Below are positions 7,471-60,908 of a stretch of DNA of 64,000 nucleotides, piece after piece. Positions within the stretch are counted from its first letter, which is position 1; each line of letters starts with the position of its first letter. A model generated the notes under the pieces. That model worked only from the letters and a program-made list of their open reading frames with translations, was not told the origin of the DNA and ran no database searches. This stretch comes from Metaphire vulgaris (Eukaryota; Annelida; Clitellata; Crassiclitellata; Megascolecidae). Where the stretch lies: the NCBI GenBank assembly GCA_018105865.1, contig CM030849.1, positions 1,572,013-1,636,012 on the forward strand, in the 5' to 3' direction. A program made the translations under genes and the position numbers.

Positions 7471-8175
7471 TTATTTTTCGGAATTTCCACCCAGACCGGT
7501 CGGACCTGGCCAGGCCCCGGCCCCGGCCTCGGCCTCTGCCTCGGCCCCGGCCCCGGCCTCGGTCTCGGCCCCGGTCCCCGGCCCCGGTCTCGGCCTCGGC
7601 CTCGGCCCCGGCTTTTTGTTCCAATTCTCGAAGGCCACCGAACCGCAACCGCACTGGCAGGTGACGGGGTGCGGCGACCGGTCGTAAGAAGGGGTCCTTG
7701 GCGGTTGCGCCGGCGGCCGGCGAATGGGACACACGCCGTTCGCACAGACGCCGCCGCCCCCGCCGCCCCCGCCTTCGTACGGACGGTTGTCTCCTCCGTG
7801 AACCGGACATCTACGACTGGGCGGGAACAGTTTTCCGGGACACCGACACGTTGTCCAACTTTCTCTACAGATCGGACAGGCACAGGTACAGTCGGCGGAC
7901 CGGAACGGTGGACGGATTTCCCCGTAGGGGGGTTCCGTCGGGTCCGGCCAGTAGGTAGGCCTGCCCGGCTGCTGCTGTCCTGCGCCGCACGTGCACATGT
8001 CCGCCTCTGGGGCACACGTACATCCGGGGCGTCTTAGGTAGTTCCCGATCGGTGGGAAAGGGGGGTCAGTCTGCATTCGACCGAACGGTCTTTCTGTAGT
8101 CCTGTACATTGGTCCACCGTGTGCTATTGGACAGACGTTTCCTCGAAAGTCATCTCTCGCACGCGAAAGGCGAAC
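7471..8175 (-). CDS. gene 1, terminal exon, Cys/Pro-rich tail
   Basis: Acceptor ACGTTTCAG precedes 8175. The exon is in phase 0 and opens VRLSRARDDFRGNV, continuing through MYRTTERPFGRM to a Cys-rich stretch (CTCAPEADMCTCGAG, CTCACPICRES, CRCPGKL). It reaches the motif CQCGCG about 165 residues in, then a (PR)n/(AE)n low-complexity tail and TAA at 7471-7473. The sequence is much richer in GC than its flanks. CQCGC also occurs in unit D and CPCGCG in units A and B, which supports family membership. The extreme C-terminus is uncertain because the repeat tail is open in several frames. No known domain was recognised. Confidence 0.6.
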   Translation of the reverse strand, partial: VRLSRARDDFRGNVCPIAHGGPMYRTTERPFGRMQTDPPFPPIGNYLRRPGCTCAPEADMCTCGAGQQQPGRPTYWPDPTEPPYGEIRPPFRSADCTCACPICRESWTTCRCPGKLFPPSRRCPVHGGDNRPYEGGGGGGGGVCANGVCPIRRPPAQPPRTPSYDRSPHPVTCQCGCGSVAFENWNKKPGPRPRPRPGPGTGAETEAGAGAEAEAEAGAGAWPGPTGLGGNSEK

Positions 8176-8286
8176 CTGAAACGTAAAAAATCCAATGCAC
8201 AGAAACTACACAAAGAACTTCTTGAAATATTTACAATGATATTTCACACAGGCTTACTTAGCCTCCTAAACCACTTAAAAATTATT

Positions 8287-8374
8287 ATTATTATTATTTT
8301 ATATTATTATTATTATTATTATTATTATTATTATTATTATTATTATTATTATTATTATTATTATTATTATTATA
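8287..8374. repeat. (TTA)n microsatellite
   Basis: Nearly pure TTA/ATT array in the intron 5' of the gene 1 terminal exon. Confidence 0.9.
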
Positions 8375-8516
8375 TTCAGTTCCTCTAAATAATTCTGAAA
8401 ATTCACTGTCTCTTCGATTTTGTTTTCAAATCCCGAAATTAGAATTCTTCTTGAACACTAATGTATTCCTAAGCTTCTATAGCGCCACTTTGTAGTGCAC
8501 GGGAGCATCAGCCGAT

Positions 8517-8818
8517 AGTGGCGGTTCCAGAATTTCTTGGTGAGGGGTGAGGGGGAAAATGAATTCATAAGAGGTTGGTGAGTGGGGTGAAAAAGAGAAG
8601 AAAAAAATTAATAAAATTTGTCGAAAAGGCTGACAAAAGAAAATGTTACTCCTAATTTTACTACACCTTTACCGTAAAATAGGCTGACAAGCAAAAAAGG
8701 CCATCCGCAGTCACTAGACTTTTACCAAACAAATAGATTTCACAAGCGAAAAAAAGAGTCCGGAAGTCCGGTGGGGAGGGATGCATCCCCACTCATCCCC
8801 CACGTGGAACCGCCACTG
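8517..8818. mobile_element. MITE with GTGGCGGTTCCAG ends inserted in a LINE-like repeat
   Basis: GTGGCGGTTCCAGAATTTC at the left and GTGGAACCGCCACTG at the right, flanked by GCCGAT-AG and GCCGATGG. The host repeat occurs uninterrupted near 37373-37450 (ACCGATGGCACACC), which acts as an empty site. A shorter relative lies in the filamin intron at about 570-720. Confidence 0.7.
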
Positions 8819-9387
8819 GCCGATGGCACACCAAATCAAAATCAGTCAAGATCCACGACAAATCCAGGACAGATCCAGCAGGACAACCAGATGACTGTTA
8901 TTAATTAAATTGACCATGTCAACAAGATGGTTTTTATATCTTATTCTAAAAATGGGCCCCGGAATATTCGCAGGGCGCACATGCTGAAGCAGTAAGTTCC
9001 AAAGTTTGTGGACAGCCACGACCCACAGACATAAAGAACATCGACTGTATACGGTTTTATGGGCGCCCACGTAAATTTTTCCCCGGGGGGGGGGGGGGGG
9101 CTAAATTTCGGATTTTGTGGTTGAAAAGTCGGACGAGCAAGATACACTCACCGGTATGTCATTCTCTTGTCTACTCGGAGCTTGGTAACCTAGATTCTCT
9201 TCAGCCTCCAAGGTCCTATCAAGCTGAATAGAAAAAAATAGATGCCCCAGACAGTGACACTGCAATGTTGAAATAAATGGCCACATGGGGGGTATATCTA
9301 TATATATACCGATATACCCCACCCCCTCGCTACGCCTCTGATACCCGAACAGTCTTTAAGCGTAAATGAAACAACACGTTCAGATCG

Positions 9388-58138: not shown

Positions 58139-58243
58139 CCCGTTATTAACGGAAGTCTGTTGAAGACATTTTTCGCACAGGTTCGGTGTCCCATGGGGCG
58201 GCAGGGGCGCATGTCTCTCCGTTGTTGCCCCATAACCGCCGGC
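58139..58243 (-). CDS. unit C, exon 2, CxxC mini-exon
   Basis: A 105-bp phase-0 exon (35 residues) between acceptor AATTTTCAG and donor GTAAGA: AGGYGATTERHAPLPPHGTP then NLCEKCLQQTSVNNG. It shares the NLC..C core with units A and B. Confidence 0.75.
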
Positions 58244-58574
58244 CTGAAAATTCGACAGTTCCGAATGTACTGCAACGACCAGTACCAGTACCCCTTTGCG
58301 TCTATATCCATCGGTAGCGACAGGGGGTATACTGGTCATATGGTGGCATGGTAAATTTCCATAGTACCCTCGAGGGTAAATTAAGTTCATGGGCCCAAAA
58401 CCCGTGTAATACATGGTGTGTCAATAAAAACCGGGGTTTGGACCTCCACAACCTTCGTAATTTATAATATACAAGCAAGTAGGCCTACAGTATTTACATT
58501 ATCATATTATATACAGGACAGGGTTTCTGGTCTGAGATGAGTATGGATAATTGAATAGTACCAGCAAATTCGTA

Positions 58575-58636
58575 TAATAATAATAATAATAATAATAATA
58601 ATAATAATAATAATAATAATAATAATAATAATAATA
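58575..58636. repeat. (AAT)n microsatellite
   Basis: About 20 AAT units in unit C intron 1. Confidence 0.95.
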
Positions 58637-59417
58637 GCAGCTCTCTTCCTATGTTTATGAAATGCAGTATAATGACGAGGCATCAAGCTTATCTCTAACT
58701 TCAACACACATCCACCCAGGTTGTTGACAAGTGCATGGGCGTTTGAATAATTTTTTCCAAGGGGTGCAAAAACAGGATCACGTGACGAAAGAAATGAAAA
58801 TAATTTCCAGGGGTGCAAGTTCATCGGATTTTTAGGCTATATAAATTCATTTCTTAACTTAGTACTAAAGGTTACTTTTTAAAAAGTAATTTTACTTATT
58901 TCATAATTTCACAATTTTTCCAGGGGGGTGCAATTGCACTCCCTTGCACGTCCCTCCGGACGCCTATGGAAAAGTGCATAAATCCCAGATAAATACACAT
59001 AGAATTATGTCACATACAGTAGAACTTCGCTATAACGTACTTAATAACGGATCTGTAAGCGTTAGTACATTATATCTGGGGTGCGTTTTATACAATACCA
59101 TCCAATACGGTAGCGCTTGAAATGGGACATTGCGGTTCGTTATAACCGAGTCCGTTATATCGAAGTCCTACTGTATACAACTAGATTGGCCTTGTATAGC
59201 TATTACATATAGAAGTCGAGGCTACAGTACTTACCATTCTCTTCTGTTATACTTACCTTACTCCTATGTTATAGTACCCTTCTCAGTGGCGGCAGAGAGT
59301 GGTGGGCGCCCTGGGCCATGTGGATAAAAATGGTCTCCGAGTCAATTATTTTGGGTCACCGCCCCACTGCCGACCCCCCTCTGCACGCTACTGACCCTTC
59401 TCTTCTATGGTGCCTAC

Positions 59418-60908
59418 CCTCCTCCTCCTTAGATCGTCAAAGGTCCGCCGAGCACTGCCGCATTTGTTGACTGCCTGTGCAATTTTCTCGATCATAGACT
59501 TCGTCAGCGCTTTTGAAAGTGTCGATGGCAACCTCGGTGGCAGTGGTTCCGTTGATGGCAGCTTTCCCAAATCGGTTACTTTCTGAACGTGTTCGGAGAT
59601 CCTTTTGCTCTCGGCGCGTGGCAGGTCCATGATTATATTCGACTGCCTGCCTTGATTCGCCAGCGCCTCTTCTTCTCCTCCTCCTCCTTCTTCTTCTGCT
59701 CCTAATTCTTCCACTTCCGGTATATCGTCTTCCGGAGGTACGGATCTGTTCGATATTTTTCTCTCTTCTTCCCGAGGTAGTGATCTGCCCGATCTCCTTC
59801 TTTCGCCTTCGCGTGGCTCCGACGGCGGAGGGGATACTGATGATGATCTAAGGGGCGGTGGACCTGCTGGTTTTCCGGCAAGCGGTCTGGGAGAAAGGGG
59901 ACGAAGAGAAGGAGGAGGACGAGAAGGAGGAGGAGGCTTAGGAGGAGGAGGCCGAGGAGGAGGACGAGGAGGCTGTTTTTTCTTTTTCTTGGCAAGGCCA
60001 AGAAACGACGCGAAGGACGTCACCGAAGCCCCTATCTTAGACCCTATCTTGCCCAGAAACGACTTCTTTCGTTTCGGCTTCCCGCCGATTCGCTGGCGCG
60101 ACGATCCGGGCGGTTTCGGCTTCCCGGGTCCGGGAATTTGCAGGGTCGACGTTGCAGGTTGCGGTTGCTGCATCCTATTCAGGCTCGGTCCCCTGTGCCT
60201 AGAGGGCGGTCCTTGGTCTCCGGTACTTCGCCTTATTCCCGATGGCGAGCCGAATCTATCTGTTCTCGACCCCCTTGGGCCGTTTCTATCTGTTCCCGAC
60301 CTACTTGGGCCGTTTCTCACCATTCCCGACCTACTTGGGCCGTTTCTGACTATTCCCGATCCCCGTGGACCGTTTCTCACCATTCCCGACCTACTTGGGC
60401 CGTTTCTGTCCATTCCCGACCTACTTGGGCCGTTTCTGTCTATTCCCGATCCCCGTGGACCGTTTATATCCATTCCCGACCTACTTGGGCCGTTTCTGCC
60501 CATTCCCGACCTACTTGGGCCGCTTCTGTCCATTCCCGATCCCCGTGGACCGTTTATATCCATTCCCGACCTACTTGGGCCGTTTATATCCATTCCAGAC
60601 CTACTTGGGCCGTTTCTACCCATTCCCGACCCCCTTGCTCCTCGCATTTGTCTGTCCCGGCTGTTCGTGTCGTGAACATCATCATGTCTGCTCCTATCCT
60701 GGAGGTCTTCCACGCCTAATATTTCCTCGGAACCCTGCCCTCGTTCTCGCGTGTGCCTGCTCGTGCTCGGGCCACGTAGTCCGAGCCCGTCACCGATGTT
60801 ACCCGACCGCATGGAAGGTCTCCTTCCTCCAGCGTCTAGCATTCGCTCAGAACCCAGGTCTGAGCCACTAATTTGGTCATCTTCAGGGGGGAAGTCTTGA
60901 CGAGACAT
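59418..60908 (-). CDS. unit C, exon 1 (start of gene), Gly/Arg/Ser repeat and Pro-rich
   Basis: 497 residues from ATG 60908 (MSRQDFPPEDDQISGSD) to donor GTAGGC, phase 0. Acidic start; about 16 copies of a 10-residue NGPSRSGMDI / NGPRGSGMDR repeat; PGPGKPKPPGSSRQRIGGK; KKSFLGKIGSKIGASVTSF; a long Pro run (RPPPRPPPPKPPPP); SSSVSPPPSEP; and a helix LTKSMIEKIAQAVNKC followed by RRTFDDLRRRR. The order matches units A and B although the repeat differs. Total about 749 residues with exons 2-4. Function unknown. Confidence 0.85.

What the first reader, a model, noticed from the sequence alone, without database searches (positions are those of the whole stretch)
7471..60908. Unrecognised five-member tandem gene family with a conserved exon layout
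Units A, B and C, and less completely gene 1 and gene 2/unit D, lie on one strand and share a layout: large low-complexity exon 1, a small exon, a Pro/Cys-rich exon (C-x-CGC motifs in all but C), and in A-C a tiny last exon. In A, B and C every splice phase is 0 and all acceptors and donors fit. Exon 1 varies by repeat content, while short motifs are kept. I know no named family with this combination.
Basis: partly seen in the sequence, partly recalled or inferred. Interest (0 to 1): 0.9.

Follow-up and report, generated by a model that had tools for sequence, protein, structure and literature searches.

The report
Three-gene family of disordered scaffold proteins
Three neighbouring genes in an animal genome, likely that of an annelid worm, form a small family that turned up nowhere else in our searches of that genome and has no named relative in them; they encode proline- and cysteine-rich proteins, predicted to be floppy, that likely serve as structural scaffolds inside cells.

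Summary
Units A, B and C are a genuine gene family. Each has four coding exons, all introns in phase 0 with GT/AG ends. Coding sequence is under purifying selection, introns are near shuffle level, and exon 3 has a relative (70-71% identical to A and B) in an unnamed sequence set. An element of about 340 bp, 0.85-1.6 kb upstream of each start codon, is better conserved than the coding exons and matched exactly three places in the 728-Mb genome. The exon-3 tail also matched only A, B and C.

"Five members" fails. Gene 1 and unit D do not align with A-C above shuffled controls; they share only C-x-CGC and, for gene 1, a KKxSM motif. D is most likely two genes, with a paralogue just past the window end. 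"Deuterostome" is doubtful: a control gene's nearest named relatives are annelids.

No Pfam or NCBIfam family reaches its cut-off for exons 1 and 3 of A-C. The proteins are basic and predicted disordered, with predicted helices, a polyproline tract and a Pro/Cys tail. My best guess is a disulphide-stabilised intracellular scaffold, possibly of sperm. Expression could not be tested. Moderate interest.

The parts
22753..24015 (-). Unit A exon 1: acidic N-terminus, GRGSG repeat, KKKSMLDTL motif, predicted helix-polyproline-helix, 421 codons
   Evidence: dN/dS A/B 0.51, A/C 0.44
21205..21294 (-). Unit A exon 2 (..NLCDRCHYRPPVTT)
19560..20078 (-). Unit A exon 3, Pro/Cys-rich, ends CPCGCGRPVV
   Evidence: only 3 matches of the exon-3 tail genome-wide
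19058..19072 (-). Unit A exon 4 (GPSF stop)
25300..25642 (-). Conserved non-coding upstream element of A
31036..31878 (-). Unit B exon 1, 281 codons
29159..29206 (-). Unit B exon 2 (TDLCDRCLQCPPVPAR)
27662..28153 (-). Unit B exon 3, Pro/Cys-rich, ends CPCGCGRPVA
26587..26607 (-). Unit B exon 4 (GPSFYR stop)
32729..33071 (-). Conserved non-coding upstream element of B (343 bp, used as query)
   Evidence: 3 matches in the genome, 100/90/77% identity
59418..60908 (-). Unit C exon 1, 497 codons, GPSRSGM repeat
58139..58243 (-). Unit C exon 2 (..NLCEKCLQQTSVNNG)
56025..56657 (-). Unit C exon 3, Pro/Cys-rich; CPYGYG in place of CPCGCG
54830..54850 (-). Unit C exon 4 (RPCYGQ stop)
62190..62479 (-). 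Conserved non-coding upstream element of C
37699..37731 (-). D-small, first coding exon (MIRQDLIRRPA), own promoter-like stretch upstream to 38152
   Evidence: 83% D/D' identity over 510 aligned columns, alignment, in-frame TGA 15 nt upstream; not part of the A-C family by sequence
36385..36993 (-). D-small Pro/Cys exon (17 Cys in 214 aa with the first exon)
   Evidence: only D and D' genome-wide
34490..34636 (-). D-small probable last exon (NPYVDPQLRD..CPPEY)
   Evidence: 88% identical to D'; by my reading its frame does not join the Pro/Cys exon in phase 0
39869..46922 (-). Gene 2: K/S- and R/S-rich low-complexity coding region in several frames, likely a separate gene from D-small
10560..16926 (-). 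Gene 1 exon 1 region (repeats change frame)
   Evidence: read
7471..8175 (-). Gene 1 last exon, Cys-rich, holds CQCGC
   Evidence: one match in the genome; preceded by exons 9624-9813 and 9152-9223 read by eye

Best explanation
Units A, B and C are a clustered three-gene family, matched at this one place only in our searches of the genome, whose basic, proline-rich, predicted-disordered proteins with a cysteine-bearing tail likely act as intracellular structural scaffolds. Shown: gene structure, kinship, purifying selection, and that the exon-3 tail and the upstream element each match only these three places. Predicted: disorder, two helices and an extended polyproline stretch. Inferred: no signal peptide, hence a cytoplasmic or nuclear place; amphipathic helices and polyproline tract bind partner proteins; the Pro/Cys tail is locked by disulphides. 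Also inferred: the shared upstream element sets one common, cell-type-restricted expression programme, possibly in sperm or another terminally differentiated cell. Gene 1 and the D genes are neighbours of like composition, not proven relatives.
For: Models with consistent phase-0 splicing in all three. dN/dS 0.32-0.51 for exon 1 and 0.41-0.50 for exon 3, synonymous excess significant in all 6 comparisons of those two exons (Fisher p 0.004 to 9e-11). Identity ladder: upstream element 0.80-0.87, exon 3 0.61-0.82, exon 1 0.46-0.67, introns 0.41-0.48 against 0.41-0.46 for shuffles. The upstream element matched 3 places in 728 Mb, and the exon-3 tail 3 places. The one relative found, P0121, is 70-71% identical to A and B and reads on into a V-S that fits an unspliced GTAAGT-like donor. 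AlphaFold2: exon 3 of A has mean pLDDT 49 and no helix of 4 or more residues; exon 1 of B has helices 146-160 and 243-280 and a polyproline block at pLDDT 83-86. pI 9.9-10.2, charge +28 to +45, 9-14 Cys.
Against: No transcript, protein or localisation evidence was available. The C-x-CGC cysteines are lost in C (CPYGY), although C has 14 Cys in all. Only 9 Cys in A and B is modest for a cross-linked protein. dN/dS near 0.5 also fits relaxed constraint. The B/C comparison of exon 2 gave 1.21, over 16 codons only. Models from 3-4 sequences are weak evidence of disorder. Genome searches score only the best candidates, so their counts are lower bounds; the search with C exon 1 did not show A or B among its listed rows. 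Nothing ties the genes to sperm directly.
Confidence: 0.4

Rival explanations
1. The proteins are soluble cytoskeletal regulators: polyproline tracts bind profilin, SH3 or WW domains, and the C-terminal helix of exon 1 docks a partner; the Pro/Cys tail is a ligand, not a cross-linker.
For: Polyproline tract in all three and the SVSPPPSE motif in B and C; LTKS..E.IA..V.K invariant in the three; predicted helix and polyproline extension in B.
Against: Conserved polyproline composition alone is not specific; no known domain was matched.
Confidence: 0.25
2. They are nuclear basic proteins that condense chromatin or RNA in the germ line, and the whole cluster (K/R/S-rich gene 1 and gene 2 included) works like a protamine-type gene cluster.
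For: Strong positive charge of A-C and of the N-terminal 951-residue frame of gene 2; R/S and K/S repeats in gene 1 and gene 2.
Against: R is 7/6/11% in A/B/C and K 7-8% in A and B; the N-termini of A and B are acidic; gene 1's exon-1 tail has pI 5.1.
Confidence: 0.12
3. All five units are one ancient family that has diverged beyond alignment, keeping only ordered short motifs (KKxSM..L then C-x-CGC) and the large exon - small exon - Pro/Cys exon order.
For: Same strand, adjacency, motif order; KKxSM-type motif in A, B and three times in gene 1, none in 277,403 residues of flanking frames; C-x-CGC arises in only 231 and 236 of 20,000 shuffles of the D and gene 1 exons.
Against: No alignable similarity; the motif pattern was written after seeing it and is absent from C and from three gene 2 frames; gene 1 has a phase-2 first intron by eye; D-small starts without the large exon; the upstream element has only three matches, those of A-C.
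Confidence: 0.25
4. The open frames are fossils or chance frames in low-complexity DNA, not expressed genes.
For: The long frames of gene 1 and of gene 2 in D and D' are broken into several reading frames.
Against: For A-C: purifying selection, consistent splice sites, conserved 3' region, a conserved exon in another sequence set. Stands only for parts of gene 1 and gene 2.
Confidence: 0.05

Closest known systems
Cylicins (sperm calyx, perinuclear theca)
   Same: Basic structural proteins; their lysine-rich repeats (abstract of PMC10684152) recall those of gene 1
   Different: A-C have G/S/P/R repeats, not lysine repeats; no Pfam match; expression unknown
ODF1 and other Cys/Pro-rich sperm tail proteins (recalled, no paper read)
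   Same: Pro/Cys-rich C-terminal tail in an otherwise simple protein
   Different: No small-heat-shock domain in A-C; no similarity tested beyond the Pfam, NCBIfam, PDB and protein-database searches
Vertebrate epidermal differentiation complex genes (recalled)
   Same: Clustered genes coding repeat-rich Pro/Cys/Gly proteins that vary by repeat number
   Different: Four coding exons instead of one; no relatives found; likely another phylum
Taxonomically restricted (orphan) tandem gene families (recalled)
   Same: Restricted, fast evolving, predicted disordered, locally duplicated
   Different: Carry a family-specific upstream element better conserved than their coding exons

Membership tests
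Five-member family as proposed (A, B, C, gene 1, D) | Alignable sequence kinship of Pro/Cys exons | tested here: not met
   A-C z 22-51; D and gene 1 against A-C z -0.8 to 0.9
Five-member family as proposed (A, B, C, gene 1, D) | Shared exon layout, all phases 0 | tested here: not met
   Met in A-C. Gene 1: first intron phase 2 by eye. D-small starts in a tiny exon
Five-member family as proposed (A, B, C, gene 1, D) | Shared short motifs | tested here: inconclusive
   C-x-CGC in A, B, D, gene 1, not in C; KKxSM pattern in A, B, gene 1 only; pattern chosen post hoc
Three-member family A, B, C | Kinship, exon layout and upstream element | tested here: met
Cylicin | Sequence match to known family models | tested here: not met
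   0 Pfam families at E <= 1 for 9 of 9 pieces
Cylicin | Lysine-rich repeats | tested here: not met
   A-C carry G/S/R/P repeats; K 7-8% in A and B
Cylicin | Testis-specific expression, sperm calyx location | not testable with these tools
   No expression data
ODF1 | Small-heat-shock-like domain (recalled) | tested here: not met
   No Pfam match
Protamine-type sperm nuclear basic proteins | Very high arginine content (recalled) | tested here: not met
   R 7/6/11% in A/B/C
Epidermal differentiation complex genes | Coding sequence in one main exon (recalled) | tested here: not met
   Four coding exons

The most novel reading that the evidence does not exclude
The stretch of about 70 kb from gene 1 to D' is a structural-protein gene complex of a worm: at least three unrelated or long-diverged orphan families (A-C, D/D', gene 1, plus gene 2), coding basic or Cys/Pro-rich disordered proteins, gathered on one strand and co-expressed to build one cross-linked cell structure such as the sperm head casing, with the A-C element as its founding control site.
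Probability: 0.2. Interest if true: 0.65.

Novelty: new member of a known kind. Interest (0 to 1): 0.42.

Why it matters
It adds a protein family with firm gene models and no named relative in our searches; such genes are easily missed because they are low in complexity and have no known domain. The coding exons drift while an upstream element of about 340 bp is kept at 80-87%. That makes it a clean case for asking how disordered proteins can change so freely while their expression programme is (if the element is regulatory) held fixed. If the cluster proves to serve one structure, such as sperm, it would be a worm counterpart to the gene complexes that build vertebrate skin or sperm.

Tried and rejected
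Rejected: one five-member family. Rejected: 'deuterostome' as established. Rejected: intron blocks shared by A/B and B/C as kinship evidence; both are dispersed repeats with further copies in 264 kb. Rejected: the upstream element as a coding exon; its frames are not kept in C (my reading), and no Rfam family at gathering score and no tRNA lies in the window. CpG depletion as a hint of expression was uninformative. An A-kinase-anchoring reading of the exon-1 helix was considered from memory and dropped, because by eye B and C lack the pattern. Mitochondrial COX1 to name the organism: only a 123-bp fragment in the assembly. Annelid marker PF16915 did not complete, so the taxon rests on one control gene. 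PDB profile search: one chance-level match, E 0.88. NCBIfam: two weak matches far below cut-off for B exon 1, none for the other 9 of 10. Gene 2 piece 41515-43200 met Pfam Mucin-like below its cut-off (26.1 against 28.7 bits), which I take as low complexity. Flank profile searches also gave chance-level matches at E 0.2-0.8. Literature: seven full-text searches listed nothing on this family; from PMC10684152 I saw abstract and outline only, other papers only as search listings.
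Full report
What was checked. The finding gives no unit coordinates, so I rebuilt the units from the sequence. The window is G000:C18:1572013-1636012 of a 728-Mb genome in 246 contigs. All units lie on the - strand.

Units A, B and C. Each has four coding exons, every one of length divisible by three, with GT donors and AG acceptors: A 24015-22753, 21294-21205, 20078-19560, 19072-19058 (628 aa); B 31878-31036, 29206-29159, 28153-27662, 26607-26587 (467 aa); C 60908-59418, 58243-58139, 56657-56025, 54850-54830 (749 aa). Exon 1 begins MAAP(E/D)DEGDFDDV in A and B, carries a repeat of very different size (A long, B nearly absent, C of another unit), then a stretch with polyproline ending in LTKS..E.IA..V.K....FDD. 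Exon 2 holds (N/D)LC(D/E)(R/K)C. Exon 3 is Pro/Cys-rich, with PYRNS..R..PQP invariant and CPCGCGRP in A and B, CPYGYGSP in C. A shared AATAAAATTAT-type sequence lies downstream of each last exon (read).

Is it more than chance? Yes for A-C. Local alignment z-scores against shuffles are 51, 22 and 22.5 for exon 3 and 26, 10 and 16 for the non-repeat part of exon 1 (A/B, A/C, B/C). Nei-Gojobori dN/dS is 0.51/0.44/0.32 for exon 1 and 0.50/0.47/0.41 for exon 3, with synonymous excess significant in all six. Exon 2 is too short to use (0.15, 0.51, 1.21 over 15, 30 and 16 codons). Introns are near shuffle level (0.41-0.48 against 0.41-0.46; B intron 1 was taken only to 30700, leaving out the microsatellite next to exon 1), whereas a stretch just upstream of the ATG is at 0.67-0.79, the 3' region at 0.92 for A/B and 0.62-0.67 for the C pairs, and an upstream element at 0.80-0.87.

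The upstream element. Blocks A 25642-25300, B 33071-32729 and C 62479-62190 lie 1.29-1.63, 0.85-1.19 and 1.28-1.57 kb upstream of the ATG. They hold CACGTGATTTCACATCCTG without mismatch in all three and, with up to three mismatches allowed, nowhere else in the window, followed by the inverse CAGGATGTG (one change in C). As RNA it folds better than shuffles (z -2.5, -3.1, -3.6); as DNA it reads as an E-box next to an inverted pair (names recalled). In the whole genome the 343-bp B block has exactly three matches, at 100, 90 and 77%. In each pair it is better conserved than either large exon, though the A/B 3' region is better still. I read it as the family's promoter or first non-coding exon; this is inference.

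Genome-wide copy number. The C exon-3 tail (96 aa) matches C, A and B and nothing else at E <= 0.01 (6 of 6 candidates scored). A exon 3 alone found A and B. C exon 1 found itself; the other listed rows lie in or overlap its repeat region and reflect low complexity, the list of 229 was cut, and A and B exon 1 were not among the rows shown. The tool states that its counts are lower bounds. Profiles of exons 1-3 found no further member in 200 kb of flanks, only chance-level rows at E 0.2-0.8.

Relatives elsewhere. B (467 aa) found no protein at E <= 0.001 among 5159 candidates. An A/B/C alignment found one of 7994 scored candidates at E <= 10: P0121, E 1.3e-67, 164 aa, from an unnamed source. 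It is an exon-3 relative, 70% and 71% identical to A and B, that reads on past the exon as V-S, as expected of unspliced DNA with the same donor. So exon 3 is conserved in another sequence set, probably another species. As a control, an SLC25A51-like open frame in the left flank gave 980 relatives at E <= 0.001 (120 listed), many from named animals, so the database does hold animals.

Which animal. One gene is thin evidence, but it speaks against 'deuterostome'. The marker search meant to settle this did not complete.

Gene 1 and unit D. Against A-C exon 3, the D Pro/Cys exon gives z -0.8, 0.0, -0.3 and the gene 1 Cys exon 0.9, 0.9, 0.9 (0.7 against C on a repeat); the gene 1 exon-1 tail gives 0.8-1.5. 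(In one search D was read in a wrong frame; one search corrects it.) What is shared is short: C-x-CGC, which appears in 231 and 236 of 20,000 shuffles of the D and gene 1 exons, and KKxSM..L, present in A, B and three times in gene 1, absent from C, from three gene 2 frames and from 277,403 residues of flanking frames, but a pattern written after the fact. Old kinship is possible, not shown.

D is most likely two genes, and doubled. Just right of the window lies D', at 64019-78760 in window numbering. D and D' share gene 2 (64-88% by piece), a block upstream of it (81%), a promoter-like stretch with the exon MIRQDLIRRPA (83%), the Pro/Cys exon (88% DNA, 94% protein, dN/dS 0.38) and a last exon (88% protein). 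In D an in-frame TGA lies 15 nt upstream of that ATG, and D' shows the same codon in the alignment, so D-small most likely starts there and gene 2 is separate. Only D and D' match genome-wide; the gene 1 Cys exon has one match, itself. By my reading the frame of the last D-small exon does not join the Pro/Cys exon in phase 0, so one boundary is unresolved. Gene 2 frames are broken in both copies.

Protein character and mechanism. A-C have pI 9.9-10.2, net charge +28 to +45 and 9-14 Cys. Exon 3 of A has mean pLDDT 49 and no helix of four or more residues; exon 1 of B has mean pLDDT 54, helices at 146-160 and 243-280 and a polyproline stretch at pLDDT 83-86; these models rest on four and three sequences. 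There is no leading hydrophobic stretch (sequence). From this I infer an intracellular scaffold: helices and polyproline bind partners, the repeat is a variable spacer, and the Pro/Cys tail is fixed by disulphides. Sperm is my first guess for the cell, by analogy with cylicins (abstract of PMC10684152), and is not shown by anything here.

A and B exchange sequence or share a tight constraint. Synonymous divergence in exon 3 falls from 0.77 and 0.39 in the first two 40-codon blocks to 0.15 and 0.20 in the next two, while P0121 keeps residues there that are closer to C (WPxPPYGM). Gene conversion between A and B is a likely cause.

Verdict. A real three-gene family without named relatives, next to a second two-gene family and a single gene of like composition. 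New as sequences; ordinary in kind, with an unusual upstream element.

Noticed in passing
window 25300-25642, 32729-33071, 62190-62479 (-): Upstream element of A-C, better conserved than the coding exons and matched three times in the whole genome, with an E-box-like CACGTG and an inverted CACATCCTG/CAGGATGTG pair.
   Followed up: yes
G000:C18:1636031-1650772 (window numbering 64019-78760; L013, L014): A second copy of gene 2 plus the D-small gene (D') just beyond the right end of the window.
   Followed up: partly
window about 19560-19830 and 27662-27915: The 3' half of A and B exon 3 is far more alike at synonymous sites than the 5' half, which points to gene conversion.
   Followed up: partly
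window 12250-13150: Gene 1 repeat with regularly spaced cysteines in a lysine-rich array (KCEKKDKKGKCIKKKDDK); frames change between units.
   Followed up: no
window 22424-22714, 28608-28893; 29235-29399, 57274-57438: Two dispersed repeat families inside introns of A/B and B/C, with further copies in 264 kb.
   Followed up: partly
window 2031-3852 (+): Filamin-repeat open frames on the + strand at the left end, one of them running straight on from a long trinucleotide repeat in the same open frame.
   Followed up: no
window 50542-53883 (-): A PAN_1-like open frame (just over the Pfam cut-off) and a second open frame lie between units D and C, so the cluster is not a pure array.
   Followed up: no
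window 34490-34636 (-): Probable last exon of D-small (NPYVDPQLRD...), not mentioned in the finding, 88% identical to D'.
   Followed up: partly
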